From assembly GCF_017309385.1 (NCBI RefSeq), contig NZ_JAFJMJ010000002.1, positions 2,790,001 to 2,854,000 of the forward strand: a DNA stretch of 64,000 nt. Direction: 5' to 3'. Numbering within the stretch: the stretch's first letter is position 1; the number at the start of each line of letters is the position of its first letter. This document shows, one piece after another, positions 38,590 to 55,318 of the stretch. The DNA is from Amycolatopsis sp. 195334CR (GTDB lineage Bacteria > Actinomycetota > Actinomycetes > Mycobacteriales > Pseudonocardiaceae). Position numbers and translations under genes: made by a program. A model generated the notes under the pieces. That model saw nothing but the letters and a program-made list of their open reading frames with translations, was not told where the DNA came from and ran no database searches.

Positions 38590-38680
38590 GGACGCAGCCT
38601 ATCGCCAGGCGATCATCAGGAAACCGTGCGCGCCGCCGGTCAGCGTGGCTCCCGTCCGTTCTCGTCAACCAGGGAGTTCC

Positions 38681-40195
38681 ATGAGCACATCGACCGCACG
38701 GCGCGCCGGGCCGAGGCAGTGGGCGGGGCTCGCCGTCCTGTCACTGCCCACCGTGCTGCTCGGCCTGGACGTCACCGTGCTGTACCTCGCCCTGCCCTCG
38801 CTGGCCGAAGACCTGCGCCCCAGCAGCACCGAAACGCTGTGGATCATGGACGCCTACGGCTTCCTGATCGCCGGTTGCCTGATCACCATGGGCACGCTCG
38901 GGGACCGCGTCGGGCGGCGGAAGCTGCTGATGATCGGCGCGGCCGCGTTCGGCGTGGTCTCGGTGGTCGCCGCGTACTCGACCAGCGCCGAACTGCTCAT
39001 CGCCGCGCGCGCGTTGCTCGGCGTCGCCGGTGCCACGCTGATGCCGTCCACGCTGGCGCTGATCAGCACCATGTTCACCGACGCCCGTCAGCGCGCGCTG
39101 GCGATCGGGGTGTGGGCGACCAGCTTCGCGCTCGGCATGGCCGCCGGTCCGCTGGTCGGCGGCGCGCTGCTGTCGGTGTTCTGGTGGGGTTCGGCGTTCC
39201 TGGTGGCGGTGCCGATCGTGGTGGTGCTGCTGGTCGCCGCGCCGTTCCTCGTCCCCGAGTACCGCGCGCCGCGTAGTGGCCGCTTCGACCTGGTCAGCGT
39301 GGTGCTCTCGCTGCTGGCCATCCTGCCGGTGGTCTACGCGGTGAAGCGGGTCGCCAAGGAGGGCTTCGACCTGCCCGCGCTCGTGGCGACCGGGCTCGGC
39401 GTGGGGTTCGCGGTGCTGTTCGTCCGGCGGCAGCGCGGGCTGGCCAGCCCGCTGCTGGACGTGCGGTTGTTCGCCGGTCGCACGTTCAGCGCCGCGCTGA
39501 GCATCCTGCTGGTCGGGCTGGTCGGCGTCGGTGGGGTGATGCTGCTGGTCACGCAGCAACTGCAGTTCGTCGAGGGGTTGTCCCCGATGGCGGCCGGCGC
39601 GTGGCTGGGGCCGCCGGCGCTGATGATGTTCGTGGCCGCGATCGGTTCGCCGCTGGTGGCGCGCCGGGTGCCGCCGGGCATCGTCGTCGCCGTCACGCTG
39701 GGGTTGTCCACGATCGGGTACCTGTCGCTGGCGGTGGTGGGCCCGACCGGTGGTGTCGCGCTGGTCGTGGTCGGGTTCGGCCTGGTCTACCTCGGGCTCG
39801 GGGCGATCGCCGCGCTGGGCACGGACCTGGTGGTCGGCGCGGCGCCGCCGGAGAAGGCGGGTTCGGCTTCGGCGCTGTCGGAAACCGTGCAGGAGCTGGG
39901 TTTGGCGCTGGGCGTGGCGGTCCTGGGCAGCCTCGCCACGGCGGTCTACCGCGGGGAAATCGGCGACCAGGTGACTCCGGGCACCCCCGCCGCGGTGGCC
40001 GACAGCATCGCGGGCGCGTCGTCGGTGGCGGACCAGATCAGCCCGGAACTGCTCGGACACGCCCGGGAGGCCGCGACAGCAGGGCTGAATACCGCCACGC
40101 TGGTCGCGGGCGTGGCCATCCTGGTGCTGGCGGTCGTGTCCGCCGTGGCGCTGCGCCACATCGGAACCATCGGCAGCAACGAGGGGAAGTCCTGA
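38681..40195 (+). CDS. MFS drug/metabolite exporter, DHA2 (14-TMS, EmrB/QacA) type
   Basis: Predicted 504 aa from ATG 38681 (AGGGAG upstream). Fourteen membrane helices are expected. Motif A is GTLGDRVGRRKLLMIGAA and the helix 1 motif is LDVTVLYLALPSLAEDL, typical of QacA-type exporters; RALLGVAGATLMPSTLALIS and GPLVGGALLSVFWWGSAFLV are motif C-like segments. Likely exports an antibiotic or toxic cation. It may be switched by the divergent AfsR-type regulator. Confidence 0.94.
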   Translation: MSTSTARRAGPRQWAGLAVLSLPTVLLGLDVTVLYLALPSLAEDLRPSSTETLWIMDAYGFLIAGCLITMGTLGDRVGRRKLLMIGAAAFGVVSVVAAYSTSAELLIAARALLGVAGATLMPSTLALISTMFTDARQRALAIGVWATSFALGMAAGPLVGGALLSVFWWGSAFLVAVPIVVVLLVAAPFLVPEYRAPRSGRFDLVSVVLSLLAILPVVYAVKRVAKEGFDLPALVATGLGVGFAVLFVRRQRGLASPLLDVRLFAGRTFSAALSILLVGLVGVGGVMLLVTQQLQFVEGLSPMAAGAWLGPPALMMFVAAIGSPLVARRVPPGIVVAVTLGLSTIGYLSLAVVGPTGGVALVVVGFGLVYLGLGAIAALGTDLVVGAAPPEKAGSASALSETVQELGLALGVAVLGSLATAVYRGEIGDQVTPGTPAAVADSIAGASSVADQISPELLGHAREAATAGLNTATLVAGVAILVLAVVSAVALRHIGTIGSNEGKS

Positions 40196-40196
40196 A

Positions 40197-40574
40197 ATGC
40201 ACGCATCAGACGCCGTGGGCGAACAGCTCAGGGGGCACGAGCCCCTCTTCCACCGCGCCGAGCTCGGCACGAGCCGGGAAGACTTCGAGCAGATGATGGC
40301 CCCGGACTACTGGGAGGTCGGCGCGTCCGGCGCGAAGTACGGCCGTGACCGCATCCTGAGCGAGCTCGACCAGCGCTATTCGACCGACGGTTACGCCGAA
40401 TCCGACACCTGGGAGGTCCACGACTTCGCTTGCCGCGCCCTCGGAGAGGCGACGTTCCTGGTCACCTACGAACTCCTGCATCGAGGCCGACGAACCAGAC
40501 GGGCGACCGTGTGGGCTCGCCGACCCTCCGGCTGGCAGGCTCAATACCACCAAGGGACGGTCATCCCCGACTGA
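40197..40574 (+). CDS. SnoaL/DUF4440-like small protein
   Basis: Predicted 125 aa, NTF2-like fold: EPLFHRAELGTSREDFEQMMAPDYWEVGASGAKYGRDRILSEL, then FLVTYELLHRGRRTRRATVWARRPSGWQAQYHQGTVI. DUF4440-type proteins of this kind are common in actinobacteria, mostly with unassigned activity. It begins 1 bp after the exporter stop, so it is co-transcribed and may act on or bind the exported compound. Confidence 0.8.
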   Translation: MHASDAVGEQLRGHEPLFHRAELGTSREDFEQMMAPDYWEVGASGAKYGRDRILSELDQRYSTDGYAESDTWEVHDFACRALGEATFLVTYELLHRGRRTRRATVWARRPSGWQAQYHQGTVIPD

Positions 40575-40577
40575 AAG

Positions 40578-41549
40578 CTACGGCGCGATCAGGTCGATCA
40601 AGTACTCCTGATCGGCCTGACCGGTGCAAGGACCATGCCGCGCCTCCCGGTCCGCGACGGCCTGTTTGCCCGCGATCCCGATGCACAGCTCGCTGTGCAC
40701 GGGCTGCAGCCGGTACCGCCGCGAGTCGGGGGCACCGACCGGGTTCAGGCGGAACACCTGCGCGGACCGGCTCTCGCTGCAGTCGTCCCATGGTTCGACC
40801 AGGTCCTTGCCGGCCCCATCGGTCCGCACGACGAGGCACCCCACGCCGTGCTCCGGGTGGTGCCACTGGATCTGCACCAGGCCCGTGCCGACCGGCCGCA
40901 AGTACGTCCGGGGCGGCACGGCCTGGTCGCACGGCCTCAGCGCCGCCACGGCGTGCTCGTAGCCACCGGTGGAATCGCGCCCCTCGCTGAGGCAGAGATC
41001 GGCGGCGGCCGCTGCCCGGATCGTCGCCCAGCTCCCGACCGTGCCCATGGTCAGCCCGGGGATCGGCAGTCCGGCCCCGGCGGCCGGAGCCTGCTCGTGG
41101 GCCTGGTCGGAGAACACCGCGTACCCGCCGACCCCCAGCGCGGCCAGCACGACCACCAGCACCACCCCCACCCGCGCGGCGCCCGGCCATCGCCGCGGTG
41201 GCGCCGCCGCGGGCACGGGCTCGGTCCAGACCGGGGGGTTCCCCATCGCGACCCGACGGCGAGCCGAGAGCCAGTCCTGCACCACGGCCTCGTCCAGCCC
41301 GCAGGCCCGCACCAGCGCGGTCACGATCTGCTCGCGCGGCAGCGTCGGCCGGCCGAGCGCGGCGGCGATGGTGCTCGACGGGAGCACGTCCCCGTTCGCC
41401 GTGGCCTTTCCCTCCAGCTCGCGGAAGGTCAGCCCGGACCACACGCGCAGCGCCCGCAACGCCGCCACGAATTCGGTCGCCGTGCCCGCTTCCCGGGGCT
41501 GCGGGGGCTGGTCAGCGGGCACCACGCTCTGTTTCCGCTCGGCAGTCAC
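40578..41549 (-). CDS. HTH protein with one membrane helix and a ricin-like extracellular domain
   Basis: Predicted 323 aa from GTG 41549 (AGGAGGGGG upstream). Residues ~20-95 are an XRE-like helical domain (EFVAALRALRVWSGLTFRELEGKATANGDVLPSSTIAAALG). A single transmembrane helix (VGVVLVVVLAALGVGGYAVF) follows at about 125-145. The remaining ~165 residues have a Cys-rich beta-trefoil look (LCLSEGRDSTGGYEHAVAALRPC, SELCIGIAGKQAVADREARHGPC), as in ricin-type lectins. The layout, cytoplasmic HTH plus external lectin-like domain, suggests a one-protein surface sensor. Confidence 0.78.
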   Translation of the reverse strand: MTAERKQSVVPADQPPQPREAGTATEFVAALRALRVWSGLTFRELEGKATANGDVLPSSTIAAALGRPTLPREQIVTALVRACGLDEAVVQDWLSARRRVAMGNPPVWTEPVPAAAPPRRWPGAARVGVVLVVVLAALGVGGYAVFSDQAHEQAPAAGAGLPIPGLTMGTVGSWATIRAAAAADLCLSEGRDSTGGYEHAVAALRPCDQAVPPRTYLRPVGTGLVQIQWHHPEHGVGCLVVRTDGAGKDLVEPWDDCSESRSAQVFRLNPVGAPDSRRYRLQPVHSELCIGIAGKQAVADREARHGPCTGQADQEYLIDLIAP

Positions 41550-41639
41550 GGGACCCCCTCCTGATCGTGGACCCCGCCCACGATGCCGTCCCCGCGCACA
41601 ACGCCCGCACAATCCGCGTTGAATCCGCAGGTAGGAGCC

Positions 41640-44363
41640 TCACCGCGCGGCACCGAGCTTCGCCTCTACCCGCGACACCTGCTCGCCCCGGTTGTGCTGC
41701 CGGTAGCGGGTGATCGCCTCATCCCACGCCCGGCGTGCCTCGGCGAGCTCGCCGAGTTCCCGGTACGCGTCACCGATCCGGTCGAAGGTGTCGGCCTCGT
41801 CGGCGGTGTACCCGAGTTCGCGGTACACCACGAGCGCCGCCTGGAAGTACCCGACCGCGTCCCGGTGCGCGCCGGAGGTCGCGGCGATGTGCCCCAGTGT
41901 GTCCAAAGTGGCGCCTTCACCGCCACGACTGCCGTGCGCACGCAGCAAAACCAGGGCCTGCTCGCCGCACACGCGCGCCCGTTCCGGATCGAGCCCGGTC
42001 AGGTACCACGCCATCATGTTGAGCGCATTGGCTTCCCAGTCCGGATTCCCCAGTTCGCGGAACAACGCGAGCGCGTGCTCGGCGTGTTCCACCGCCGCGG
42101 TGTTGTCCCCCTGCTGACCCGTCACCCACGCCAGCGAGTGCTGGGTGTGGGCCTTCTCCTCGGTGGTGCGGGCGTACTCCCACGCGAGCCGCGAGTTCGC
42201 CAGTCCTTCTTCCAGCAGACCGGCCCGCACGTACGCACGAGAGGCGAGCCGATGGCACAGGTTGCGGACCTCCGGCTCGTGCTCCGCCGCGGCGAGCCCG
42301 AGTTCCCACGCGGCCACGTGGTCGTGCGGATCGGCCCGCATCCAGGAGTACGTGGCCTGCGCCCACGCCAGCTGCCAGGTATGGGCATACCAGCCCCGGT
42401 CGAACGCGAGCCGCTGCACCGCGGGCAGATTGGCGCGTTCGGCGGCGAACCAGGCTTGCGCGGCGGCGGCATCGGCCGGATTCCACGGTGGAACGGCCGG
42501 TGGTGGCAACTCGATCGGCGGACGGTTCGGCTCCAGCACGCGCTCGCAGGCGAAGGCCGTGTGCAGGTAGAACTCGGTCAGGCGCAACGCGGCGCCGTCC
42601 TCGGCGGGGAGTTCGGCGGCATAGTGACGGGCCAGGTCGTGCAGGGTGAACCGGCCGGGGCGAGGTTGCCGGACCAGGCTGGCGGCGGCCAGCTCGCGCA
42701 GGGAAGCCCGCGCCACCACCAGGGACTGATCCCCGATCGCGGCGGCGGCTTCCCCGCTGATCTCCGGCACGACCGCCTGGCCGAGCAGGGCGAACATCCG
42801 GCGCGCGGCCGGGGACAACCCCGCCAGCGACGCGGCGAAGGCGGCCCGCACACCGGAAGTCAGCTCGCCGGTTTCGAGCGCGTCGAGGGGCGCGGCCACC
42901 AGGTCGTCGGCGGTCGCCTGGAGCGGGAACTCGGGGTTGTTCGCCGCGAGCGCGGCCACGACGCCCAGTGCCAGCGGCAATCCCGCACACCGATCGAGGA
43001 TGACCGACACCGCCTCCGGTTCCGCGCCGACGCGCTCCTCGCCGAGCCTGCTGGCGAGCAGTCGGTGCTCATCCTGCGGCGAGAGCGTGTCCAGCGTCAT
43101 CCGCCCGGCGCTGTGCTCGGCCGCGAGCGCGGTCAACTGGCTGCGGCTGGTGACGAGCGTCGTGCACCAGCCGGAACCAGGAAGCAAAGGACGGACGTGG
43201 TCGCTGTCGCGGGCGTTGTCCAGCACGACCAGCAGCCGCTTGTCCGCGACGCGGCTGCGGAACAACGCCGTTTGCGCGTCGAGACCGGACGGGACGGCGT
43301 CGGCGGCGACGCCCAGCGCTTCCAGGAACCCGCGCACCGCGACCTCCGGGCGGAGCGGCCCGGACGTGGTGTACCCGCGCAGGTCGACGTAGAGCTGGCC
43401 GTCGGGGAACAGGTGCAGGTTCTGGTGGGCCCAGCGCAGCGCGAGCCAGGTCTTCCCGACGCCGCCCATGCCGGTCACGGCCACCAGCCTGGTCGTCCCG
43501 GAGTTCTGGGCCGCCTTGTCCAGCTCCGCCAGATCGGCCTCGCGCCCGATGAACAACGACGGCGACGCGGGGAGTTGCCGGGGTGCCGAGTCGGGTCTCG
43601 GCGTCAAAGCAGGGTCCGCCACGAGGATGCGCTGGTGCAGTTCCTGAAGCGGCGGCGCCGGTTCGGTACCCAGCTCGTCGACGAGGGCCTGCCGGGTCCG
43701 CCGGTAGTGCGCCAGCGCGGCGGCCTGCTGGTCACCGCGGTACAACGCGAGCATGAGCTGCGCGGCGGCGCGCTCGTCCAGTGGGCGGTCGTGGGACCGG
43801 GTGGTCAGTTCGGGGAGCAGTTCCTGATGCCTGCCGCACTCCAGCGCCCAGTCGACGCGGTCGGCATCGGCGGTGGCCTTTTCGAGTTCCAGGCGCTCCC
43901 GGACGCTGTCTGCCCAAGGCGTGGCCAACTCCGCGAGCGGCTTGCCACGCCAGAGCGCCAGTGCCTCGTCGACCAGTTGGAGTGAGCGGTGCGGGTCCTC
44001 CTGTTCCCGGGCCAAGGCGAGCAACCGGTGGAAGCGGTGCACGTCGACGCGGTCGCTCTCGATGACCAGCACATACCCGGTGTCGCGGCGCTCGATCGCC
44101 GCCCCGGCCTCGGCAACCGCCCGGCGAAGGTGGGTCAGGTAGGTGCGCAACACCGGCCGCACCCGGCTCGGCGCTTCGTCACCCCAGACGCGGTCGATGA
44201 GGCTGTCCACCGTCACCACGCGGTTGGCCTCGACCGCCAGCACCACCAGCACCGCCCGCCTGCGGCTGTGCCCGGCCGGTACCGGCTCACCCGCCGAACG
44301 CACCTCCAGTTCCCCGAGAACACCCACATCCGGCTGCCCGCCGATACCGCCCGCTTGTTGCAC
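41640..44363 (-). CDS. AfsR/SARP-family regulator with NTPase and TPR domains
   Basis: Predicted 907 aa from GTG 44363; GTG 44327 is an alternative that fits the family N-terminus (VGVLGELEVRS). OmpR-type DNA-binding domain to ~100, BTAD ~105-255 (ALYRGDQQAAALAHYRRTRQALVDELGTEP), NB-ARC ~280-540 with Walker A GMGGVGKTWLA and Walker B KRLLVVLDNARD, then TPRs (AHTQHSLAWVTGQQGDNTAAVEHAEHALALFRELG). Second large SARP of the window, only distantly related to the one at 35.9-38.6 kb. It lies next to the isonitrile-type genes, which it may activate. Confidence 0.93.
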   Translation of the reverse strand: MQQAGGIGGQPDVGVLGELEVRSAGEPVPAGHSRRRAVLVVLAVEANRVVTVDSLIDRVWGDEAPSRVRPVLRTYLTHLRRAVAEAGAAIERRDTGYVLVIESDRVDVHRFHRLLALAREQEDPHRSLQLVDEALALWRGKPLAELATPWADSVRERLELEKATADADRVDWALECGRHQELLPELTTRSHDRPLDERAAAQLMLALYRGDQQAAALAHYRRTRQALVDELGTEPAPPLQELHQRILVADPALTPRPDSAPRQLPASPSLFIGREADLAELDKAAQNSGTTRLVAVTGMGGVGKTWLALRWAHQNLHLFPDGQLYVDLRGYTTSGPLRPEVAVRGFLEALGVAADAVPSGLDAQTALFRSRVADKRLLVVLDNARDSDHVRPLLPGSGWCTTLVTSRSQLTALAAEHSAGRMTLDTLSPQDEHRLLASRLGEERVGAEPEAVSVILDRCAGLPLALGVVAALAANNPEFPLQATADDLVAAPLDALETGELTSGVRAAFAASLAGLSPAARRMFALLGQAVVPEISGEAAAAIGDQSLVVARASLRELAAASLVRQPRPGRFTLHDLARHYAAELPAEDGAALRLTEFYLHTAFACERVLEPNRPPIELPPPAVPPWNPADAAAAQAWFAAERANLPAVQRLAFDRGWYAHTWQLAWAQATYSWMRADPHDHVAAWELGLAAAEHEPEVRNLCHRLASRAYVRAGLLEEGLANSRLAWEYARTTEEKAHTQHSLAWVTGQQGDNTAAVEHAEHALALFRELGNPDWEANALNMMAWYLTGLDPERARVCGEQALVLLRAHGSRGGEGATLDTLGHIAATSGAHRDAVGYFQAALVVYRELGYTADEADTFDRIGDAYRELGELAEARRAWDEAITRYRQHNRGEQVSRVEAKLGAAR

Positions 44364-44571
44364 CCCTCTTGAATACCGGCAGTCCCTTCAACGGCCAAGC
44401 GCAATGCCGGAAACGGCGGCCAGCTCTCCGGCGTCCGTTGTGGACACAGCAGGCGGCTTGACCCCCGAATCGGCTTGGCCGACTGGAGTGATTTCCCACG
44501 GATAGCCTGCCCGTTCGTGCCCTGGCACGGGCCGCACGCGGCGTCTGCCATCGGCGCCCTCACCCGGGCGC

Positions 44572-44586
44572 ATAACGCGATGTTAT
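44572..44586. promoter_or_regulatory. Inverted repeat upstream of the pvcB-like gene (candidate LysR site)
   Basis: ATAAC-GCGAT-GTTAT is a perfect 5-bp-arm dyad with a 5-bp spacer, 50 bp upstream of the pvcB-like start. Its right part, CGATGTTAT, recurs in the lysR/pvcA intergenic region, suggesting one LysR regulator controls both. Confidence 0.6.
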
Positions 44587-44635
44587 CCCCAGACGACAGT
44601 AGGTAAGGCCATCCCGCGCGGTCAGGATGGAAGCC

Positions 44636-45448
44636 ATGATCGTCGTCGAGAAGTTGAGTTCGTTCGGGGTGGTGGTGCGGCCCGGCCCCGGTGCCGCCCA
44701 GCTCGCCGAGCTGCCCGTCGACCACCTTCGTGAACTGGTCAGGACCCACCACCTCCTGCTGCTCAGGGACTTCCCGCCGTTCGGCACCCCCGCCGAACTC
44801 ACCGAGTGGAGCGGCACCTGGGGTGAGATCAGCATGTGGCCCTTCGGCGCGGTGCTCGAACTGGTCGAGCACGACAACCCCGGCGACCACATCTTCGACC
44901 ACAGCTACGTCCCCCTGCACTGGGACGGCATGTACCGGCCGCAGGTACCGGAGTTCCAGATCTTCCACTGCGTCACCGCCCCGGCCGAGCACCAGGGCGG
45001 CCGGACCACCTTCGCCAATTCCCGAACGGCGGTGGCCGACGCCGAGCCGGAAACAAGACGCCTCTGGGAACGCGTCACCGGCACCTACCGGCGCAAGATG
45101 GAGTTCTACGACAGCAAGGCCGTCTCCCCGGTGGTGACCACGCACCCCGTCGCCGGCTTCCCGGTGCTGCGCTACGGAGAACCCGCCATCGCCGGTGACC
45201 CCGACTTCATCAACCACCCCGACCTCGAGTTCACCGGCGCCGACGACCGCTTCCACGAGAGCATCCGCGCCGCCCTCTACTCCCCCGCGCACTTCTACGC
45301 GCACGCCTGGCAAGCCGGCGACGTCGTCGTGGCCGACAACTACACGCTGCTCCACGGACGCGAGGCCTTCACCAGCCGCGCCCCGCGGCACCTGCGCCGC
45401 GTGCACGTGCTCGGTGACCCGCCGCTGGACAACCCCGCGCTCCGATGA
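44636..45448 (+). CDS. pvcB: PvcB-type Fe(II)/2-oxoglutarate-dependent oxygenase (TauD/TfdA superfamily)
   Basis: Predicted 270 aa from ATG 44636 (GGATGG upstream; ATG 44627 is an in-frame alternative). Iron ligands are the HxD in PLHWDGMYRPQ and a distal His in NYTLLHGREAF, with the 2-oxoglutarate-binding Arg in the following SRAPRHLRRVHV. HIFDHSYVPLHWDGMY, FQIFHCVTAP and TGTYRRKMEFYDS are the segments I associate with PvcB rather than taurine dioxygenases. PvcB oxidatively desaturates the isonitrile made by PvcA from Tyr or Trp. A pvcA-type gene lies 2.4 kb downstream. It is coupled to the next gene by an ATGA overlap. Confidence 0.82.
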   Translation: MIVVEKLSSFGVVVRPGPGAAQLAELPVDHLRELVRTHHLLLLRDFPPFGTPAELTEWSGTWGEISMWPFGAVLELVEHDNPGDHIFDHSYVPLHWDGMYRPQVPEFQIFHCVTAPAEHQGGRTTFANSRTAVADAEPETRRLWERVTGTYRRKMEFYDSKAVSPVVTTHPVAGFPVLRYGEPAIAGDPDFINHPDLEFTGADDRFHESIRAALYSPAHFYAHAWQAGDVVVADNYTLLHGREAFTSRAPRHLRRVHVLGDPPLDNPALR

Positions 45449-46884
45449 CAGCGGAGACTCCCACGGAGGTCGACGTCCTCGTGGTCGGTGCCGGTCCGGT
45501 CGGCCTGCTGTGCGCCTTCCTCGGACGGCTGCACAACCTGCGCGTCCTGATCGCCGACAAGACACCGGGGCCGCTTCGCACCGGCCGGGCCGACGCGCTC
45601 AACGCACGCTCGTTGCAACTGCTGGAGATAGTCGGCCTCTTCGACGACCTCTACCCGCTCGGGAAAACCTGCGACACCAGCTCGGTCTGGTCCGGCGGCC
45701 GGTTCGTCTCCCGCCAGTCGACCTGGTGGGAGGAGCTGGAAGGCTGCTTCCACAAGCACTTCCTGATGCTCGGCCAGTCCCACGTCGAAGGCCTCCTGGA
45801 TCGGCGGGTGGGTGAGGTACGCCGCGGGACGTCGGTCGAGGCGGTGGACCTCGTCGACGGTGGCTGCCGGTCCACGCTGTCGTCCGGCGAGGTCGTCGAG
45901 TCGAAGTTCGTCATCGGCGCCGACGGCTCCCGTTCGTTCGTCCGGGAAGCCTTCGGCATCCCGTTCGCGCTCATCCGGCCGCAAATGATCTGGGCCGTGC
46001 TGGACGGTGTCATGGCCACCGACTTCCCCAAGGTTCCGGAGATCATCGTCTTCCAGGCCGAAACCTCCGACGTGGCGTGGATTCCGCGCGAGGGAGACCT
46101 CGATCGGTTCTACGTCCGGATGGATGTGGAGGAGTTCACCTTCGACCAGGTCGTCGCCAAGATCAACCGCGCCCTGCACCCGCACCGGCTGGCCGTCGAG
46201 CGGGTCGAGTGGTACTCCCGCTTCTCCGTCAAGGAATCCGTCGCGGAGCGGTTCTCGGTGGACGAGCGGGTCCACCTGGCCGGGGACGCCTGCCACGTCC
46301 ATTCGGTGAACGGCGGCCAGGGGTTGAACACCGGGCTGTCGGACGCGTTCAACCTCATGTGGAAGCTCGGCATGGTGGTCAACGCCGGTGCGCCACCGGA
46401 AATCCTGCGCTCGTACGAAGAGGAACGCAAGCCGGTCGCGCTGAGCGTGGTCGAGTCCTCCGGTGCACTGGTACGCGCGACCAAGTACTCCGACAACGGA
46501 ACTCACGCGGTCGACTACGTCAAGACCGTGGAACGGCGGGCAGGCAACATCACCGGCATGGGAATCCGTTACGGCGAAAGCGGCCTCGCCGGTACCCGCC
46601 TCTTCGACTTCCTCGTCGAGTCGGACGGTCCGCGGATCTACTCGCTGCTCGACTACCGGTTCTTCACGCTCCTCGTCTTCGGTGACCACCACCCGCCCAT
46701 CGACCTGCCCCCTTTCGTCAAAACGCTGCGGTTCCCAAGAGCCCCCGAATGCCCGTACTCGAACCAGTTGCTCCTCGTCCGCCCCGATTCCCACATCGCC
46801 GCCGCATCGTCCACTGAGGACACCTCGGCGATCACCGGCTACCTGCGTTCGCTCTCGCCCATCGCCGCCAGCCAGTCGAGATAG
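45445..46884 (+). CDS. FAD-dependent phenol-hydroxylase-like monooxygenase
   Basis: Predicted 479 aa. VDVLVVGAGPVGLLCAFLGRLHN is the FAD loop, SKFVIGADGSRSFVRE the DG motif and RVHLAGDACHVHSVNGGQGLNTGLSDAFNLMWKL the GD motif characteristic of phenol 2-monooxygenase relatives. The C-terminal thioredoxin-like domain is only partly present. It overlaps the pvcB-like gene by 4 bp, so it acts in the same pathway, plausibly ring-hydroxylating an aromatic isonitrile as PvcC does in pseudomonads with an unrelated flavoenzyme. Its 3' end overlaps the convergent lysR gene by 46 bp. Confidence 0.88.
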   Translation: MTAETPTEVDVLVVGAGPVGLLCAFLGRLHNLRVLIADKTPGPLRTGRADALNARSLQLLEIVGLFDDLYPLGKTCDTSSVWSGGRFVSRQSTWWEELEGCFHKHFLMLGQSHVEGLLDRRVGEVRRGTSVEAVDLVDGGCRSTLSSGEVVESKFVIGADGSRSFVREAFGIPFALIRPQMIWAVLDGVMATDFPKVPEIIVFQAETSDVAWIPREGDLDRFYVRMDVEEFTFDQVVAKINRALHPHRLAVERVEWYSRFSVKESVAERFSVDERVHLAGDACHVHSVNGGQGLNTGLSDAFNLMWKLGMVVNAGAPPEILRSYEEERKPVALSVVESSGALVRATKYSDNGTHAVDYVKTVERRAGNITGMGIRYGESGLAGTRLFDFLVESDGPRIYSLLDYRFFTLLVFGDHHPPIDLPPFVKTLRFPRAPECPYSNQLLLVRPDSHIAAASSTEDTSAITGYLRSLSPIAASQSR

Positions 46885-47792
46885 ACCGGACTCCGGTCGA
46901 CCGCGGTCCGGTACACCCGCTCCGCCGCCGCGACCAGCTCCCCCGCCACCGCGGCCAGCGGCCCGTGGTTCTGCCACACCAGCACGTGGCTGGCCCACAT
47001 CGGATCGCCCGCCAGCGGCCGCACCACCACCCCGGCGTGGCGGCGGAACGTGGCCTGGCCCAGCCCGATCGCCTGGCCGCTGCTGATCAGGTCGGTGTAA
47101 CTCCCGGCCTCCGCCTCGTAACCGACCTTCGGAGGGAAGCCCGCATCGTGGCACGCCAGCGTGAAGTACTCCCGGAACCGGTTGTCGTCCGGCGGTTCCA
47201 GCGCCCACTCCTCGTCGGCCAGTTCGGCCAGCGGCACCGCTTCCAGCCCGACCGCGGGATGGGTTTCCGGCAGCAGCACGAACACCGGCTCGGTGGCCAC
47301 CACGTGCCGCAGCACCCCGGCGCGGAGTTCCGTTTCGTAGCCAGGGAACTCCAGCAGGGCGGCCAGTTCCAGCCGCCGTCCCGCCAGCAGGTCGACCAAA
47401 AGCGCGTTGGACTGCTCGGTGCGGAACCGGATCTCGGCGTCCGGGCGCAGTTCCCGCAGCGCGGGGAGCAGTCCGGCGGCGAGCGGGCCGAGCACCGCTC
47501 CGTAGTGGAGCCGGGCGGGGGTGCCGGACGCGTGGTGCGCGGCGCCGCTGTTCAGCTCGTCCATCGCCGGGAGCACGGCCCGCGCCCGGGACAGCACGTA
47601 GGAACCCAGCGCGGTCAGCGTGGTCCCGTTGCCGTCCCTGGTGAACAGCGGTCCGCCCAGCGCCCGTTCCAGCCGCTGCACCTGCCTGGTCAGCGCGGGC
47701 TGCGAAATGCCCAGCGCGGCCGCGGCCCGGTTGAGGCTGCCGTGGTCGGCGACCGCGCACACCACCCGCAGGTGTCGGACTTCCAGTTCCAT
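46839..47792 (-). CDS. LysR-family regulator of the isonitrile locus
   Basis: Predicted 317 aa from ATG 47792. HTH: GSLNRAAAALGISQPALTRQVQRLERALGGPLFTRD. The PBP-like effector domain follows (RLHYGAVLGPLAAGLLPALREL). It is divergent from the pvcA-like gene, 51 bp apart, and convergent with the hydroxylase. In Pseudomonas a LysR protein, PtxR, is encoded beside pvcABCD, a parallel arrangement. The intergenic CGATGTTAT also occurs upstream of pvcB. Confidence 0.92.
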   Translation of the reverse strand: MELEVRHLRVVCAVADHGSLNRAAAALGISQPALTRQVQRLERALGGPLFTRDGNGTTLTALGSYVLSRARAVLPAMDELNSGAAHHASGTPARLHYGAVLGPLAAGLLPALRELRPDAEIRFRTEQSNALLVDLLAGRRLELAALLEFPGYETELRAGVLRHVVATEPVFVLLPETHPAVGLEAVPLAELADEEWALEPPDDNRFREYFTLACHDAGFPPKVGYEAEAGSYTDLISSGQAIGLGQATFRRHAGVVVRPLAGDPMWASHVLVWQNHGPLAAVAGELVAAAERVYRTAVDRSPVYLDWLAAMGESERR

Positions 47793-47797
47793 CCCCC

Positions 47798-47806
47798 GAT
47801 GTTATG
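47798..47806. promoter_or_regulatory. Shared CGATGTTAT element between lysR and pvcA
   Basis: The 9-mer CGATGTTAT is identical to 44578-44586 upstream of pvcB. It lies in the 51-bp divergent promoter, close to the lysR start. Candidate half-site for the local LysR protein. Confidence 0.45.
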
Positions 47807-47843
47807 AGCCGCTGTTCCTTCCCGACGAGATCCAGGACGGACG

Positions 47844-48800
47844 ATGATCGAACAGGATTCGGTGCCCGCGGTCGACCGGCGGGCCGCCTCGGTGCTGCGC
47901 CTCGTACTGGCCCACCAGCGCAGAACCCGGGACGCCGCGTGCACCGGCGCGGTGTGCGCCCGGTGCCTCGACCACCACCTCGGCACCGTCCGGGCGCTGG
48001 TGGCCGCGGGCCGCCGGATCGACCTCGTGCTCCCGGCGTTCCCGGTGAAGTCGCCCAATCCCGCCAAGGTGCTGGGCGTCCTGCCCGACCTCGCCGAGGA
48101 GCACGCGCTGCGCTTCCTGCGGTCGCTGGCCGACCGGATCGGCGAGCTCCACCCGGCCGGCGCGCGGGTGCTGATCTGCTCGGACGGACGGGTGTTCAGC
48201 GATCTCATCGGGGTCTCCGACGAGGTCGTGTCGGCCTACCGCGCGGAGCTCGACCGGATGATCGCGCGGGTCGGCGGCGGGCGGCTGGGCCAGTTCTGCC
48301 TGGACGACGCGGCCGCGGGCCGCTCACCGGAACAGATGCGCGCGGACCTGGTGCGCCGCCACGGCCAGCCGGTCGAGCGGATTCGCGCCGAGGTCCGGGC
48401 CGGTGGGCCGCTGCTCGGGATGTACCGGGGCATCACCCGGTTCCTGGTCGAGGACCAGTCGGTTCCCGGCCGCACCGAGAGCCGGGCGGCGCTGCAACGC
48501 CGTTGCCGTGAACGCGCGTACGGCGTGATCTCGCGCAGCAACGCCTGGTCGAACCTCCTGGCCGAGCACTTCCCCGACGCGGTCCGGCTGTCGATCCACC
48601 CGCAGCCGTGCGGCTCGGCGAAGCTCGGCGTACTCCTGGCCGACACCCCGGACACGTGGCTGACCCCGTGGCACAGCGTGGCCGTCCAGGACGGCGCCCG
48701 CATCCGGCTGATGAAACGAGCCGATGCCGAGGCCGCCGGCGCCACCCCGGTCCTGGTCGACGGCCGACCTACGCACTACCGGCTGCCTGCTCGGCGGTGA
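47844..48800 (+). CDS. pvcA: Isonitrile (isocyanide) synthase of the PvcA/DIT1 family
   Basis: Predicted 318 aa, the family's usual length. Conserved blocks are intact: LVLPAFPVKSPNPAKVLGVLPDLAEE, VLICSDGRVFSDLIGV, YGVISRSNAWSNLL, VRLSIHPQPCGSAKLGVLL and TWLTPWHSVAVQDGARIRLMKR. PvcA/IsnA enzymes convert the amino group of Tyr or Trp to an isonitrile using ribulose-5-phosphate as carbon donor. With the PvcB-type oxygenase upstream this is a two-enzyme core for a vinyl isonitrile. ATG 47844 is used. Its 3' end overlaps the convergent monooxygenase by 25 bp. Confidence 0.9.
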   Translation: MIEQDSVPAVDRRAASVLRLVLAHQRRTRDAACTGAVCARCLDHHLGTVRALVAAGRRIDLVLPAFPVKSPNPAKVLGVLPDLAEEHALRFLRSLADRIGELHPAGARVLICSDGRVFSDLIGVSDEVVSAYRAELDRMIARVGGGRLGQFCLDDAAAGRSPEQMRADLVRRHGQPVERIRAEVRAGGPLLGMYRGITRFLVEDQSVPGRTESRAALQRRCRERAYGVISRSNAWSNLLAEHFPDAVRLSIHPQPCGSAKLGVLLADTPDTWLTPWHSVAVQDGARIRLMKRADAEAAGATPVLVDGRPTHYRLPARR

Positions 48801-50032
48801 GCCCCTACCAGCCGTCCCGCGAGAGAACGGAACGCGTTCTGGGTCCCGGTGACCGCCTTCAAGCCGAACTTGCCGAGCCGGAAGGCCACCGGCCCCTCGA
48901 GGCGTTGGGCCCACCGCAAGTTCGACGTGCTGGCCGCCACGGCCTTCCGGCCACGGCTGAGCATGCGCGACTCGTAGCCGCCCAGCGCGCGCGTGGGGTC
49001 GGCGAGCCCGCGGTCGATCAGCGCGATCACGTCGGCCAGGTCGACCGCGTCGCACAACGCCGTGCTCGCCCCGATCCCGCCGGTCGGCGGCATGACGTGG
49101 ATCGCGTCCCCGAGCAGGGTGACCGAGGGCGAGGTCGGCCAGGCCGGGGTCTTCGGCGCTGCCCAGAACGTCAGGGGCACCATCGACGCGGCATCCGCGT
49201 GCGCGACGAGTTCGGCGGCGGCAGGGTCCCAGGCGTCGAGCAGTCCCAGCACCGGCGCTCGCAGGGGTTCCCCGGGACCCAGCTCCCGGGGATCGGCCTG
49301 CCACCGGTCCGGTGGTGCCGCCACCGCCCACAGCACGTACGGCTCCTCCGGGTCGCTCGGCTGGTGGTACGAGAAGAACAGGTTTCCACCCCCTGGGCCG
49401 AGCACGAACCCCGTCCCCCGCAGGAAAGGCGGCGGCAGGGACAACGTCCGCGCGATGTCGAGGCTGGTCGTGCCGGCCACACAGCGGGTGGGCCACGCCG
49501 ACGGTTCCGATCCGGGCAGCAACTGCGCGCGAACCGCGGAGGCCCGGCCGTCGGCGCCGACGAGCAGCGTGCCTTCCACTTCGTCCCCATCAGCGAGTCG
49601 CACGCTCACGCCGTTGTCGGGCAGCGCCCGGTACCCGGTCACTTCACGTCCCCAGTGGACCTCCGCGTCCAACCCGGTCAGCAGCATCGAGCGCAGGGCA
49701 CGGCGGCTGACCATCACGTCGTCGTCGACCAGAGTTTCCGAGCCACCCAACGGAATGGCGGCCAGCTCGGTCAGCGATTCGTCGAGCAGGTGGAACGCGT
49801 CCAGTGGTACCGACGCGGCGGCGAGCACCCCGAGGTAGTTCCGCAGCGGCAGGCAGTCGTACAACGCGCGGTTGGCTTCCCCGGTCAGGTGCAGCCGATA
49901 GCCACTCCACTGCGCGTCGAAGCCGCTGTCCCGTTCGAACACCGCGACGTCCACGCCCCGGCGCCGAAGTCCCTGCGCCAGGCAGAGACCACCGATACCG
50001 GCACCCGCGATGATCACCCGTGTGCTTGCCAA
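48776..50032 (-). CDS. FAD-dependent monooxygenase co-transcribed with the LitR-like regulator
   Basis: Predicted 418 aa from TTG 50032, supported by GGGAGG six bases upstream. VIIAGAGIGGLCLAQGLRRRG is the FAD loop, GTLLVGADGRASAVRAQLL the DG motif and VTLLGDAIHVMPPTGGIGASTALCDAVDLA the GD motif. It belongs to the group A hydroxylase/oxidoreductase class found in polyketide and carotenoid tailoring. It follows the MerR/B12-like gene by 18 bp on the same strand and overlaps the pvcA 3' end, so it could serve either the carotenoid or the isonitrile pathway. Confidence 0.87.
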   Translation of the reverse strand: MASTRVIIAGAGIGGLCLAQGLRRRGVDVAVFERDSGFDAQWSGYRLHLTGEANRALYDCLPLRNYLGVLAAASVPLDAFHLLDESLTELAAIPLGGSETLVDDDVMVSRRALRSMLLTGLDAEVHWGREVTGYRALPDNGVSVRLADGDEVEGTLLVGADGRASAVRAQLLPGSEPSAWPTRCVAGTTSLDIARTLSLPPPFLRGTGFVLGPGGGNLFFSYHQPSDPEEPYVLWAVAAPPDRWQADPRELGPGEPLRAPVLGLLDAWDPAAAELVAHADAASMVPLTFWAAPKTPAWPTSPSVTLLGDAIHVMPPTGGIGASTALCDAVDLADVIALIDRGLADPTRALGGYESRMLSRGRKAVAASTSNLRWAQRLEGPVAFRLGKFGLKAVTGTQNAFRSLAGRLVGAHRRAGSR

Positions 50033-50050
50033 CCGGTCCCTCCCTGAGCG

Positions 50051-50938
50051 CTACTCGATCATCTCGGTGATCCGGGTCAACGCGCCGGGCAGGTCGTCGA
50101 CACGCGGGGTGCGCCGCCCGGTGAACTGGTTCCAGCCCGGTCCGGCCAGGCAGGGCCGTCCGCCCGCCCGCCGAATCCGGCGCAGCACACCGATGTCGGC
50201 GGTGCCCGGGGCCATCGACCACAGCACGACCACGGCCGGGGACAGGTGCTTCGTCAGCGCGACGATGGTGTCCGGCGGCACCATCGGGCCAAGGTACATC
50301 GCCGCGACGTTGAGCTCCGCCAGTGCGCCGCGGAGCACTTCGAGCGGCAGGGTGTGCCGCTCGGCCGGGCAGCACGCGAGCAGCAACGGCGCCCCGCCCA
50401 GCGCGGTGCTGCGGGGCCGGGCGTAGCGCTCCAGCGCCGCGGAGATCTCGCGCGCCAGCGCCCACTCCGCGGCGAAGCACGGCTCGCCCGCGGTCCAGCT
50501 TTCTTCGAGCCGAAGCAACAGCGGGACCAGGATCTCCTGCCACGTGGTGACCACACCGCCGGCCGCGAGAGCATCGTCGAGCAACGCGGCCATGGTGGCG
50601 TACCGGAGGCCGTCCGCGGCCTCGTGCAACGCTTGCATGGTGCGCTCGGCCTGCCCGGTCACCAGCGGATCGTCTCGTCCGGAGAGCACGAGCTGGGCGG
50701 CTTCCCGAGTCCGGACACCCCGGCTCATCAAGCTCTGCATCCGTTGCAGCCCGGCCACATCGGCCGTCGAATACCGGCGTTGCCGCCCCGACTCGCGCAC
50801 GGTCGGGCCGATCCCGTACCGGGCGTCCCAGCTGCGCAGTGTCACCGGTGACACGCCCAGGAGGTCCGCGACCTGCCCGGGCGTCCACACGTTGCGCGCC
50901 GAGACCTCGTCCCGGCCCGGTGCGGACTTCGTCGTCAT
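50051..50938 (-). CDS. litR: MerR-family regulator with cobalamin-binding-like domain (CarH/LitR type)
   Basis: Predicted 295 aa from ATG 50938. N-terminal MerR HTH: WTPGQVADLLGVSPVTLRSWDARYGIGPTVRE, RQRRYSTADVAGLQRM. A four-helix bundle and Rossmann-like B12-binding domain follow. LitR/CarH regulators bind adenosylcobalamin in the dark, repress carotenoid genes, and release on illumination. The diagnostic W-x9-E-H of the helix bundle appears here as W-x9-E-W (SWTAGEPCFAAEW), and the lower-ligand region as AERHTLPLEVL, retaining the His but with Pro for the usual Gly. Adjacent crt genes and a matching direct-repeat motif support the assignment. Confidence 0.82.
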   Translation of the reverse strand: MTTKSAPGRDEVSARNVWTPGQVADLLGVSPVTLRSWDARYGIGPTVRESGRQRRYSTADVAGLQRMQSLMSRGVRTREAAQLVLSGRDDPLVTGQAERTMQALHEAADGLRYATMAALLDDALAAGGVVTTWQEILVPLLLRLEESWTAGEPCFAAEWALAREISAALERYARPRSTALGGAPLLLACCPAERHTLPLEVLRGALAELNVAAMYLGPMVPPDTIVALTKHLSPAVVVLWSMAPGTADIGVLRRIRRAGGRPCLAGPGWNQFTGRRTPRVDDLPGALTRITEMIE

Positions 50939-50970
50939 GGTCAGGATGTTCCCACATCGCGCCCCGGTCG

Positions 50971-50986
50971 CATCGGTTTCGCAACG
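50971..50986 (+). promoter_or_regulatory. Candidate LitR operator upstream of litR
   Basis: CATCGGTTTCGCAACG: two YAWCG pentamers (50971-50975 and 50982-50986) exactly 11 bp apart, 32 bp from the litR start. Matches the sites at 55263-55278, 55780-55795 and 60135-60150; suggests autoregulation. Confidence 0.65.
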
Positions 50987-51028
50987 AATCGCCGGATTGA
51001 CCGGCTGCCGAATGGGTACCCCTCGGGC

Positions 51029-51187
51029 ATGCCTACCCCCGCCCGAGCAGGTGCCGCGGACCCTCGAGCCCACCTGAGCAGCCCACCCCAGCCGCGATTC
51101 GGCGAGGCGATCGCCCACCGGCAGCGACGCAAGGCACTGGGCGAAGACCTGCTGCGCGCAGTCGCCTCCAGCCGCGGCAGGCAGTGA
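51029..51187 (+). CDS. Possible small basic protein (52 aa)
   Basis: An ATG frame of 53 codons in the otherwise empty gap between litR and crtU. The C-terminal half (FGEAIAHRQRRKALGEDLLRAVASSRGRQ) is helical and basic. There is no clear Shine-Dalgarno. It may be chance coding in high-GC DNA. The rest of the 334-bp gap (50939-51272) holds only the candidate LitR site. Confidence 0.25.
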   Translation: MPTPARAGAADPRAHLSSPPQPRFGEAIAHRQRRKALGEDLLRAVASSRGRQ

Positions 51188-51272
51188 TCCCCAGCAACCG
51201 GTCAACGGCCGCGAAGCTCTCCCAGCGGCCGGTCGGCGATCCTCCACCAACCGGCCTGCCCGAAGCAGGCTG

Positions 51273-52793
51273 TCACCCGGCCCCAGCAGCCCGCCGCCGG
51301 GCGAGTGCCCGCACCAGCCCCAGCCGCCCCTGGTTCGGCACCGACCAGGTCGGGTGTCCCCGCAGCCCCCATCCCGCCAGCAGCCGGTTCGCCGCCTGCC
51401 AGCCGGTGGTCGCGGCCCGCTCCATCAACGCCACCGGCAGGTCCACCCGGATCCCGTCCCCGGCCAGCACCAGCCCCGGCACCGGGGTCTCCACCCCCGG
51501 CCGGCGCGCGAAGTCGCCCAGCCCGAAAAGCGGGCAGTCCTGCCGCCACTGGTCCAGCTCGCCCACGATGCGCGCCTGCCGGGTCTCCGGGTAGATCTCG
51601 TGCAACCGGTCGAGCAACCGGTCCGGCAGGTCGGCCGACCGTTCGGCCACGGCGTAGGCGTGCAGTTCGACCACCGCCCCGCCGGTGCGCGCGGCCCACT
51701 CCGCCGCCTGGGCCTCGAACCGGTCGAGCACGCTGATGTTGTCCAGCGGCGGCAAGCTCCCGGTACCGAGGAACGGCGCCCGTTCGACCCGCAACGGACG
51801 ATCGAGCCACAGCCGGCGCACGTAGAAAGCGGGCGCGGTCCGCAACCTCTCGATCCGCTCACGCCACGCGGGCGTGCCCAACTCCGGTGACGCCCCGACC
51901 ACCTCGCGCAGGCCAGGAACGTCCGAAGCCAGCACCACCCCGTCGACCGGAGCACCGCGTACCCGGAAGCCGCCGCGCTCGCCGGGCTCCACCGCGTCCA
52001 CCCGGACACCCCGGTGGATCCGCACGCCCAGGTCCGTGAGGTACGCGGTCAACGGATCCCACAAACTCGCCGGATAGGTGTCCTCGGGCACATCGAAGAT
52101 CAACCCCTCCGACGAGCCGAGGAAGTACAGGTGGAACATCGTCACCAGTTCCGCCGCCGAAAGTTCCGCCGGGGACGCGAAAAAGCTGCGCGAGAACACC
52201 TCGAACGCCAGATGCCGGGCGCTCGGCGGGAAGTTCAGCCGGTCCAAAAAGGACGCCGCGTCGATGTCGTCGAGCTGGTGGTACGTCTCCGGCACCGAAA
52301 CGGCGGCCAGCGGCAGCGCCCCGGCCGGATCGATCCGCACCAGATCACGCAGCCGGAAAGTGGGGCTGCGCAGGGCGAACACCATCGCGTTCCACGGCGG
52401 CCTGCGCGGCAGGCCGCGGAAGGTGTCGACCCGGCCGCGGTCGTCCAGCAGCGGGTAGTCGGGGACCGGTTTCAACCGGCGCAGCCCCGGATCCGTACGC
52501 CGCAGCAGCGACCGCAGGTTGTAGTACTGGCGGAAGAACGCGTGGAAACCCCGGCTCATCGTCACCGGCGTGCCGTCGCCGAGCGTGGTGTCCCAGCCGC
52601 CCGCCCGGCCGCCGAGGTAGGACTCGCGTTCGTACAGGTCGACCTCGACACCGCGTTCGGCCAGCCCGGTCGCCGCGGTGAGTCCGGCGATCCCGCCACC
52701 GACCACCGCCACCCGCGGGCGCCACCGCAGTTCACCGGCGTGCGCGAGCCCGGGAGCGGGCGGGTACTCGACCCGCCGCGGATCCGCGCTCAC
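51273..52793 (-). CDS. crtU: Carotene desaturase/methyltransferase CrtU (isorenieratene-type)
   Basis: Predicted 506 aa from GTG 52793, overlapping the crtB stop (GTGA). FAD-binding loop [87 protein letters not shown] and [31 protein letters not shown] match CrtU-type enzymes, which convert the beta-ionone rings of beta-carotene to aromatic phi-rings. Its place after crtI and crtB and the presence of crtYcd support this over related hydroxysqualene dehydroxylases (HpnE). Confidence 0.85.
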
Positions 52794-53734
52794 GCGATAC
52801 GCCCCGGTACCGCCCGCGAAGCCAGGACCCGGGCGGCCGCGACGCCGGCGACGGCCGCCCGGCGCCGCATCGGGACCGTGGCTCGCCGCGCGAAGACGTT
52901 GTGGTCGGCGGCTTCGATCCGATCGAGAATGCGGGAGTACAGCTCGAAAGCGGTGTGGATGCAGGGACGCGCGGCCGGGTGCAGCATCGCCACCCCGGGG
53001 CGAGCGCGGCGGTAGACGGCGCGGGTGAAGGCGATCTGGTCCGCGAGCGCCCGCCGCACCGGTGGATCGATCCGCCGGTGTTCCCGGCACCAGCGCAGCC
53101 GATCCCGGTCCACGCCGAAGGCGGCGAGCTCGTCGGCGGGCAGGTACACCCGGCCGCGGTCGAGGTCCTCCCCCACGTCACGCAGGAAGTTGGTGAGCTG
53201 GAACGCCGTGCCCAGCGCTGCGGCGGGCCCGGCCGCGGCCTCGCGGTCGGTCACCGTGCCCAGCACCGGCAGCATCTGCAGGCCGATCACCTCCGCCGAA
53301 CCGTGCACGTACTCGGTCAGTTCCGGGCGCGTGGCGTACCCGGTGGTGGTCAGGTCCATGCGCATCGAGCGCAGGAAGGCCTCGAACAGCGCGTGGTCCA
53401 GCGCATAGCGGCGGGCCGTGTCGGCCACCGCGAGCAGTACCGGCTCGTCGACCGCCGCACCGGCCAACGCGGCCGCGAGATCCTTGTCCACCCTGGCCAG
53501 CCGCTCGTCGAGGGCGGCCGTGGTGGTGCCGGATTCGGGTTCGTCGACCAGGTCGTCGACCCAGCGCGCGAAGCCGTAGAGCGCGTGGACCGCCGGTCGG
53601 CGGGACGGGCTCAGCAGGCGCGTGGCCAGGAAGTAGGTGCGCCCGTGCCGGGCGTTGAGTTCGCGGCAGCGGGCGTAGGCGGCGCGCAGTTCGGCCCCGG
53701 TGATGCCCGCCGCGTCGAGTTCGGCCCGGGTCAT
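52790..53734 (-). CDS. crtB: Phytoene synthase
   Basis: Predicted 314 aa. Condenses two GGPP to phytoene. First Asp-rich motif in [15 protein letters not shown], second in [21 protein letters not shown], both typical of squalene/phytoene synthases. [22 protein letters not shown] is the N-terminal signature. ATG 53734 overlaps the crtI stop by 4 bp (ATGA), so crtI-crtB-crtU is one translationally coupled operon. Confidence 0.95.
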
Positions 53735-55215: not shown

Positions 55216-55262
55216 CACAGTTCCTCCGCGAGCGGGTGGAGCACGGACCCGGCACCGGATTC

Positions 55263-55278
55263 CGATGCACAAGCGTTG
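55263..55278 (-). promoter_or_regulatory. Candidate LitR operator upstream of crtI
   Basis: On the minus strand, CAACGCTTGTGCATCG: two YAWCG pentamers exactly 11 bp apart. Sixteen bases, 14 of which match the site at 60135-60150. Confidence 0.7.
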
Positions 55279-55318
55279 CACCGGTCAGCGTAGGGCCAGT
55301 GGCCCGGGCGCGCAGCGC

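What the first reader, a model, noticed from the sequence alone, without database searches (positions are those of the whole stretch)
44636..48800. Compact PvcA/PvcB isonitrile gene cluster with a phenol-hydroxylase-like flavoenzyme and LysR regulator
The sequence shows a PvcA/DIT1-family isonitrile synthase with all conserved blocks and a TauD-type oxygenase with HxD...H ligands and PvcB-like segments. A flavin hydroxylase is translationally coupled to the latter, and a LysR regulator divides them. PvcA+PvcB are known to make vinyl isonitriles from Tyr or Trp. Here a group A flavin hydroxylase replaces the PvcC-type two-component hydroxylase, so the product may be a ring-hydroxylated isonitrile not described for this gene order. 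The order pvcB-FMO / lysR / pvcA also differs from the contiguous pvcABCD of pseudomonads.
Basis: partly seen in the sequence, partly recalled or inferred. Interest (0 to 1): 0.82.

Follow-up and report, generated by a model that had tools for sequence, protein, structure and literature searches.

The report
Rearranged isonitrile-type gene cluster
This stretch of an actinobacterial genome carries a small set of genes predicted to turn an aromatic amino acid, probably tyrosine, into a reactive, metal-binding isonitrile and then add a hydroxyl group to its ring; the same gene trio occurs in many distant bacteria, but here one gene lies in an unusual position and may have a different history.

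Summary
pvcB (44627-45448), a group A flavin hydroxylase (45445-46884, ATGA overlap), a reverse-strand lysR (46839-47792) and pvcA (47844-48800) are intact and all hit the expected families far above cut-off. The interpretation needs one large correction: pairing this flavin enzyme with pvcA/pvcB is not peculiar to this locus. A genome scan with the flavin enzyme alone gave 55 close relatives; 43 have pvcA, pvcB and FMO in that order, in seven phyla (Legionella, Bdellovibrionota, Burkholderia, Melainabacteria and others). What is unusual is the order pvcB-FMO / lysR / pvcA (0 of those 55). The window's pvcA also mismatches its pvcB: to the nearest locus PvcB is 81% but PvcA only 53% identical, the largest gap of 946 locus pairs, though a tree test does not reject a shared history (p 0.095). 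Three Crossiella-group genomes carry pvcB-FMO and lysR<->pvcA as separate loci; two have lost or gutted the first locus's own pvcA. Most likely pathway: Tyr -> Tyr-isonitrile -> vinyl isonitrile -> catechol vinyl isonitrile. The last step rests on retained phenol-hydroxylase residues and is inferred. My literature searches listed no product for this trio. New variant of a known kind.

The parts
44627..45448 (+). pvcB/isnB-type Fe(II)/2-oxoglutarate desaturase, 273 aa (alternative start 44636)
   Evidence: PF02668; PvcB 3EAT 6e-84, 7TCL 8e-78; HxD, H and R residues; Arg at K107 position, Gly at N188 position of PIsnB
45445..46884 (+). group A flavin monooxygenase, NCBIfam PRK07190 family, 479 aa; D50/R215/Y223 equal phenol hydroxylase D54/R281/Y289
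46839..47792 (-). LysR-type regulator, 317 aa, divergent from pvcA
   Evidence: PF00126, PF03466; LysRs 38.5-42% identical over about 312 aa beside pvc genes in G011 (L091), Crossiella (L105, L106, L129) and Kutzneria (L005) loci
47793..47843 (.). 51 bp lysR-pvcA intergenic region, probable shared promoter (inferred)
   Evidence: coordinates and sequence
47844..48800 (+). pvcA/isnA isonitrile synthase, 318 aa
   Evidence: PF05141 248.7 bits; PvcA 3E59 1.5e-77; 55 of 56 near-invariant columns kept
48776..50032 (-). second FAD monooxygenase converging on pvcA; judged NOT part of the cluster
   Evidence: PF01494; among the loci held no tblastn match at E<=1e-20 outside this locus; follows a MerR/CarH-like gene

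Best explanation
The four genes form a compact isonitrile pathway. PvcA converts L-Tyr (carbon from ribulose-5-phosphate) to tyrosine isonitrile. PvcB, an Fe/2OG enzyme of the PIsnB-like class, desaturates it with decarboxylation to a p-hydroxystyryl (vinyl) isonitrile. The flavin enzyme, encoded in a frame overlapping pvcB, hydroxylates the phenol ortho to its OH, giving a catechol vinyl isonitrile able to bind copper through the isonitrile and iron through the catechol. The divergent LysR controls pvcA. The locus looks like a mosaic: pvcB-FMO from a pvcA-pvcB-FMO operon beside a lysR<->pvcA pair of another isonitrile locus, with the operon's own pvcA lost. Shown here: genes, families, active-site residues, linkage, order and the identity mismatch. 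Inferred: substrate, each reaction, the product, metal binding, regulation and the route of assembly.
For: Family hits and structures. FMO with pvcA and pvcB in the same order in 43 of 55 close relatives found by FMO sequence alone, and within 3 kb downstream of pvcB in 50 of 55. PvcB K107 position is Arg in the window and in 47 of 50 FMO-linked PvcBs (1 Met, 1 Leu, 1 gap), the vinyl-isonitrile class by PMC9467999 section 12. FMO Asp/Arg/Tyr invariant (51 of 51, 52 of 52, 52 of 52 rows with a letter, window included); two of these are the phenol-binding residues of phenol hydroxylase (PMC3546652 passages). Mosaic: PvcB 81% vs PvcA 53% to L004, the largest gap in 946 pairs, while L004-L091 are 76% and 75%. 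PvcB tree puts the window with L004/L054/L091 (99/99); PvcA tree puts it with L006/L010/L105/L106 (99/85). Crossiella carries the two halves apart. GC is 66-69% for pvcB-FMO against 73-74% for lysR-pvcA.
Against: No product or activity is shown. The second PvcB selectivity residue is Gly, neither the Asn/His of the vinyl class nor the Cys of the acrylate class, and the source paper reports that single swaps did not change the product. VibO keeps D54 and Y289 yet makes an oxepinone, with a catechol as side product. PvcA scores 278.9 against the 600-bit cut-off of the Tyr isonitrile synthase equivalog, so Tyr over Trp is not proved by family. The AU test does not reject window PvcA grouping with L004/L091 (p 0.095), and the tree program flags window PvcA for odd residue make-up; its end branch is 0.84 against a median of 0.26, so fast change of pvcA in place is not excluded.
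Confidence: 0.52

Rival explanations
1. Isonitrile pathway as above, but the flavin enzyme does another oxidation: ring-expanding Baeyer-Villiger oxygenation of the phenol, oxidation of the vinyl group, or hydroxylation of an earlier intermediate.
Against: Phenol hydroxylase (1PN0, 1e-53) is the first sequence match among solved structures, though VibO (4e-53) is almost level; VibO also makes a catechol side product.
Confidence: 0.22
2. A paerucumarin-like route: PvcB keeps the carboxylate (isocyanoacrylate) and FMO stands in for PvcC on the way to a coumarin.
For: PvcB and PvcA score best against Pseudomonas PvcB and PvcA among the few solved relatives; Gly at the N188 position is uninformative.
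Against: Arg, not Leu, at the K107 position; no pvcC-type gene among the cluster's Pfam hits; the two HpaB-family genes found in the genome lie on contigs C1 and C3, the window on C2.
Confidence: 0.12
3. Not one pathway: pvcB-FMO is a leftover of a broken trio and the adjacent lysR-pvcA serves another product or the second PvcA-family locus of the genome.
For: Crossiella-group genomes show decay of the trio (118 aa pvcA remnant in L054, no pvcA match in L119); fragments of pvcA and FMO in L058; PvcA/PvcB identity mismatch.
Against: All four frames are intact with conserved catalytic residues, and the two halves lie side by side.
Confidence: 0.14

Closest known systems
pvcA-pvcB-FMO loci (Legionella isnAB cluster and many others)
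   Same: Same three enzymes; FMO 57-75% identical in best segments; a LysR match divergent from and upstream of pvcA in at least 17 of 43
   Different: There pvcA comes first; here pvcA lies beyond a reversed lysR and its identity does not follow that of pvcB. The Legionella paper names a P450 beside isnAB; one haem-motif pattern found none in 10 Legionella loci, which have the FMO
Pseudomonas aeruginosa pvcABCD / paerucumarin with PtxR
   Same: PvcA, PvcB and a LysR regulator; an aromatic hydroxylase (PvcC as HpaB type is recalled)
   Different: Order; no PvcC-type gene in the cluster; PvcB selectivity residues Arg/Gly against Leu/Cys
Rhabduscin isnA-isnB (Xenorhabdus, Photorhabdus)
   Same: Predicted vinyl isonitrile from Tyr; Lys/Arg at position 107 of PvcB/IsnB
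   Different: FMO here; rhabduscin is glycosylated (PMC13005658 passages)
Phenol hydroxylase PHHY (1FOH/1PN0) and VibO
   Same: Fold and Asp54/Tyr289 equivalents, in PHHY also Arg281
   Different: 479 against about 650 aa; below cut-off for the phenol 2-monooxygenase family

Membership tests
DIT1/PvcA isonitrile synthase (PF05141) | Pfam gathering score | tested here: met
   248.7 vs 26.4 bits
DIT1/PvcA isonitrile synthase (PF05141) | Conserved columns of FMO-linked PvcAs and 3E59 | tested here: met
   55 of 56 near-invariant columns of 43 rows kept; S310 is Thr
L-tyrosine isonitrile synthase equivalog NF045653 | Curated cut-off of 600 bits | tested here: not met
   278.9 bits
PvcA | Isonitrile formed from Tyr and ribulose-5-phosphate | not testable with these tools
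   needs in vitro assay
PvcB/IsnB desaturase | PF02668 with HxD...H iron ligands and substrate-carboxylate Arg | tested here: met
PIsnB-type (vinyl isonitrile) subclass | Lys/Arg at K107 position | tested here: met
   Arg; rule read in PMC9467999 section 12
PIsnB-type (vinyl isonitrile) subclass | Asn/His at N188 position | tested here: not met
   Gly in the window; Gly in 4 of 50 FMO-linked PvcBs, Asn in 41
PRK07190 FAD-binding protein (NF005531) | Curated cut-off of 530 bits | tested here: met
   756.8 bits, residues 7-462
Phenol 2-monooxygenase (NF006144) | Curated cut-off of 560 bits | tested here: not met
   190.7 bits
Group A flavin hydroxylase of the phenol-hydroxylase type | GxGxxG, DG and GD motifs (recalled); Asp54/Arg281/Tyr289 equivalents | tested here: met
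   G15-G20, D160-G161, G280-D281, D50, R215, Y223
Pseudomonas pvcABCD operon | Contiguous pvcA-B-C-D with HpaB-type PvcC | tested here: not met
   order differs; HpaB-family genes found only at C1 and C3 of the genome, window in C2

The most novel reading that the evidence does not exclude
The trio pvcA-pvcB-FMO encodes one conserved, so far uncharacterised metallophore-like product, a catechol vinyl isonitrile, spread across at least seven phyla. The window is a lineage in which two isonitrile loci have merged, each supplying half of the pathway after reciprocal loss, so that pvcA alone comes under a dedicated LysR switch.
Probability: 0.33. Interest if true: 0.62.

Novelty: new variant of a known kind. 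Interest (0 to 1): 0.42.

Why it matters
If right, a pathway present in actinobacteria, predatory bacteria and amoeba-living gammaproteobacteria makes one small molecule, not reported in what I could search, that joins an isonitrile and a catechol. It would be a candidate copper/iron ligand or inhibitor of copper enzymes such as tyrosinase, testable with three genes in a laboratory E. coli. The Crossiella/window series also suggests an operon being split and re-assembled with a different first gene.

Tried and rejected
FMO2 (48776-50032) as a fifth cluster gene: among the loci held no match at E<=1e-20 outside this locus; it follows a MerR/CarH-like gene. The AfsR-like SARP (41640-44363) as cluster regulator: at E<=1e-20 only the window's own genes and L059, which is no pvc locus. 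A leftover of the operon's own pvcA near the window's pvcB: in 44000-47843 the best pvcA match has E 0.055 (26% over 111 aa, reverse strand inside the pvcB/FMO genes), which is chance level. A second pvcB beside the window's lysR-pvcA, as in L129: only the known pvcB, next match E 0.46. Clade test of window PvcA with L004/L091: not rejected, p 0.095, so the displacement claim rests on the identity gap, the gene order and the separate loci. A P450 in the Legionella loci, as said by PMC5126622: none of 10 loci matched one haem-motif pattern, a crude test. PvcC in the pvcB-FMO gap of L017: instead AraC and DJ-1/PfpI genes, which reach no cut-off of a named DJ-1 family. Literature: searches listed no paper that I recognised as reporting a product of the trio; Brady 2007 on isnA clusters and two other papers are not held, so prior description is not excluded.

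Counts behind the 55 loci: (six peptide patterns) found 85 relatives and kept the best 80, 79 distinct loci. I counted L004-L058 (55; best FMO segment 57% identity or more, some matches partial) and left out L059-L082 (24 loci, 26-36%) as other flavin enzymes. Of the 55: 43 pvcA, pvcB, FMO in order on one strand (in L017 and L048 other genes lie between; in L049 pvcA matches in two pieces), 3 pvcB-FMO-distant pvcA, 4 pvcB-FMO without adjacent pvcA (L009 and L044 cut by the contig end), 5 FMO only (L050, L056, L057 cut; L053, L058 partial). Trees left out short, duplicate and, long-branch rows.
Full report
What is there. In 44627-48800 four intact genes stand in the order pvcB, FMO (both +), lysR (-), pvcA (+). 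pvcB and FMO overlap by ATGA; FMO and lysR converge with a 46 bp overlap; lysR and pvcA diverge from a 51 bp spacer. All four hit their Pfam families far over the cut-offs. PvcB and PvcA find PvcB 3EAT / 7TCL and PvcA 3E59 / 9DHM as nearest solved structures by sequence. The flavin enzyme is over the cut-off of NCBIfam PRK07190, an unnamed 'FAD-binding protein' family (756.8 bits, cut-off 530).

The trio is common, the order is not. I scanned one genome per species with the FMO alone, so pvc genes had no part in the choice. Of 79 kept loci (the best of 85 relatives), 55 hold close FMO relatives. 43 of 55 have pvcA, pvcB and FMO on one strand in that order; in two of these (L017, L048) other genes lie in between. 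Three have pvcB-FMO followed by a distant PvcA (Vibrio penaeicida twice, Marinomonas). Four have pvcB-FMO without adjacent pvcA (two cut by contig ends), and five show FMO only (three cut by contig ends, two partial). Hosts include Legionella, Bdellovibrionota, Burkholderia, Myxococcota, Planctomycetota, Melainabacteria, Chryseobacterium and Pseudonocardiaceae. A LysR match diverges from pvcA in at least 17 of the 43 (the search used the window's LysR, so others may be missed). None of the 55 has the window's order. In the window's own family 7 of 390 genomes (own included) carry the FMO at E<=1e-120; in its genus 0 of 59 others do at E<=1e-60.

Mosaic origin. Window PvcB is 81% identical to that of Crossiella L004, but PvcA only 53%. 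This gap (0.279) is the largest of 946 pairs of 44 loci (largest without the window 0.196), while L004 and same-genus L091 agree (76% and 75%) for the two proteins. The PvcB tree puts the window with L004, L054 and L091 (99/99). The PvcA tree puts it with L006, L010 and the Crossiella lysR<->pvcA copies L105/L106 (99/85). Against this, the AU test does not reject the PvcA grouping that would match PvcB (p 0.095), and window PvcA is flagged for odd residue make-up. Three genomes of the Crossiella group hold a lysR<->pvcA pair away from pvcB-FMO (L105, L106, L129); the third is placed there by its group code g39, which it shares with the two genomes whose loci match L004 and L054. In L054 the operon's pvcA has shrunk to a 118 aa frame with the middle missing, in L119 no pvcA match remains, and in L004 it is whole. 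pvcB-FMO has 66-69% GC against 73-74% for lysR-pvcA. I infer that the window joined a pvcB-FMO half to a lysR<->pvcA half.

Mechanism. PvcA: 55 of 56 near-invariant columns kept. PvcB: iron ligands and carboxylate Arg kept; Arg at the K107 position as in 47 of 50 FMO-linked PvcBs; the second position is Gly (Asn in 41 of 50, Gly in 4). By the rule in PMC9467999 (abstract and sections 4, 7 and 12 seen) Lys/Arg goes with vinyl isonitrile and Leu with isocyanoacrylate; the same text says single swaps did not change the product, so this is a forecast. FMO: D50, R215 and Y223 match phenol hydroxylase D54, R281 and Y289 (numbers computed on 1FOH) and do not vary among the family rows compared. PMC3546652 (passages) names D54 and Y289 as the two residues that hold the phenol for ortho attack. 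The AlphaFold model (pLDDT 82.9) is matched by Foldseek first to hydroquinone hydroxylase, VibO and phenol hydroxylase and by VIA-align first to OxyS, rifampicin monooxygenase and MtmOIV. VibO, with D54 and Y289 kept, makes an oxepinone and a catechol as side product (PMC10257657 passages), so ring hydroxylation is likely, not shown. A phenol-directed enzyme in the operon is also the main reason to prefer Tyr over Trp as substrate.

Known and new. Isonitrile synthase plus PvcB plus a LysR regulator is known (PtxR and pvcABCD: PMC3639982 passages). Legionella isnAB loci were listed in PMC5126622 (passages), with a 'cytochrome P450 oxidase' beside them; 10 Legionella loci here show the FMO and no match to one P450 motif pattern, so that label may be a slip (inference). 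The literature searches listed no paper that I recognised as reporting a product of the trio (listings seen, a few papers opened); Brady 2007 was not held. Hence: new variant of a known kind, with an open chemical question that three genes in E. coli could settle.

Noticed in passing
L003:9298-10716 (own genome C2:2971868-2972608), outside the window: A second PvcA-family gene about 134 kb away follows a 3235 aa PKS-NRPS (ketosynthase, acyltransferase, aminotransferase, luciferase-like monooxygenase, condensation, adenylation) and precedes DUF6875 and P450 genes; a related PvcA lies in same-genus G004 (L088/L095).
   Followed up: partly
L054:4587-4943, L119:6178-8482, L129:278-3452: Crossiella-group genomes: operon pvcA gutted or missing beside pvcB-FMO while a lysR<->pvcA locus elsewhere persists, in L129 with its own second pvcB.
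   Followed up: yes
L012:7795-9417, L013, L036:7556-8449: Vibrio penaeicida and Marinomonas carry pvcB-FMO followed by a distant PvcA-type protein (28-29% identity), in L012 also by a second TauD-type protein (21%); it is the only PF05141 match in the genomes of L012 and L036.
   Followed up: partly
L017:3773-5546: Pseudomonas haemolytica has an AraC/DJ-1 regulator and a DJ-1/PfpI protein between pvcB and FMO; isonitrile hydratase is, from memory, a DJ-1/PfpI protein, so a self-protection enzyme is conceivable.
   Followed up: partly
L058:5914-6411: An Allokutzneria genome with an intact trio (L006) also holds fragments of pvcA and FMO side by side, perhaps a decayed second copy.
   Followed up: no
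window 48776-55281: Reverse-strand FAD monooxygenase, MerR/CarH-like regulator and two amine-oxidase-type flavoproteins next to pvcA, possibly a light-controlled carotenoid-type cluster (the carotenoid reading is inference).
   Followed up: no
window 35920-44363: Two AfsR-like SARP regulators (35920-38589 and 41640-44363, both -) flank an MFS transporter and a DUF4440 gene.
   Followed up: no
L048:3137-7419: In Stenotrophomonas pennii a reverse-strand leucyl/phenylalanyl-tRNA transferase gene lies between pvcA and pvcB-FMO, another separation of pvcA from the other two genes.
   Followed up: no
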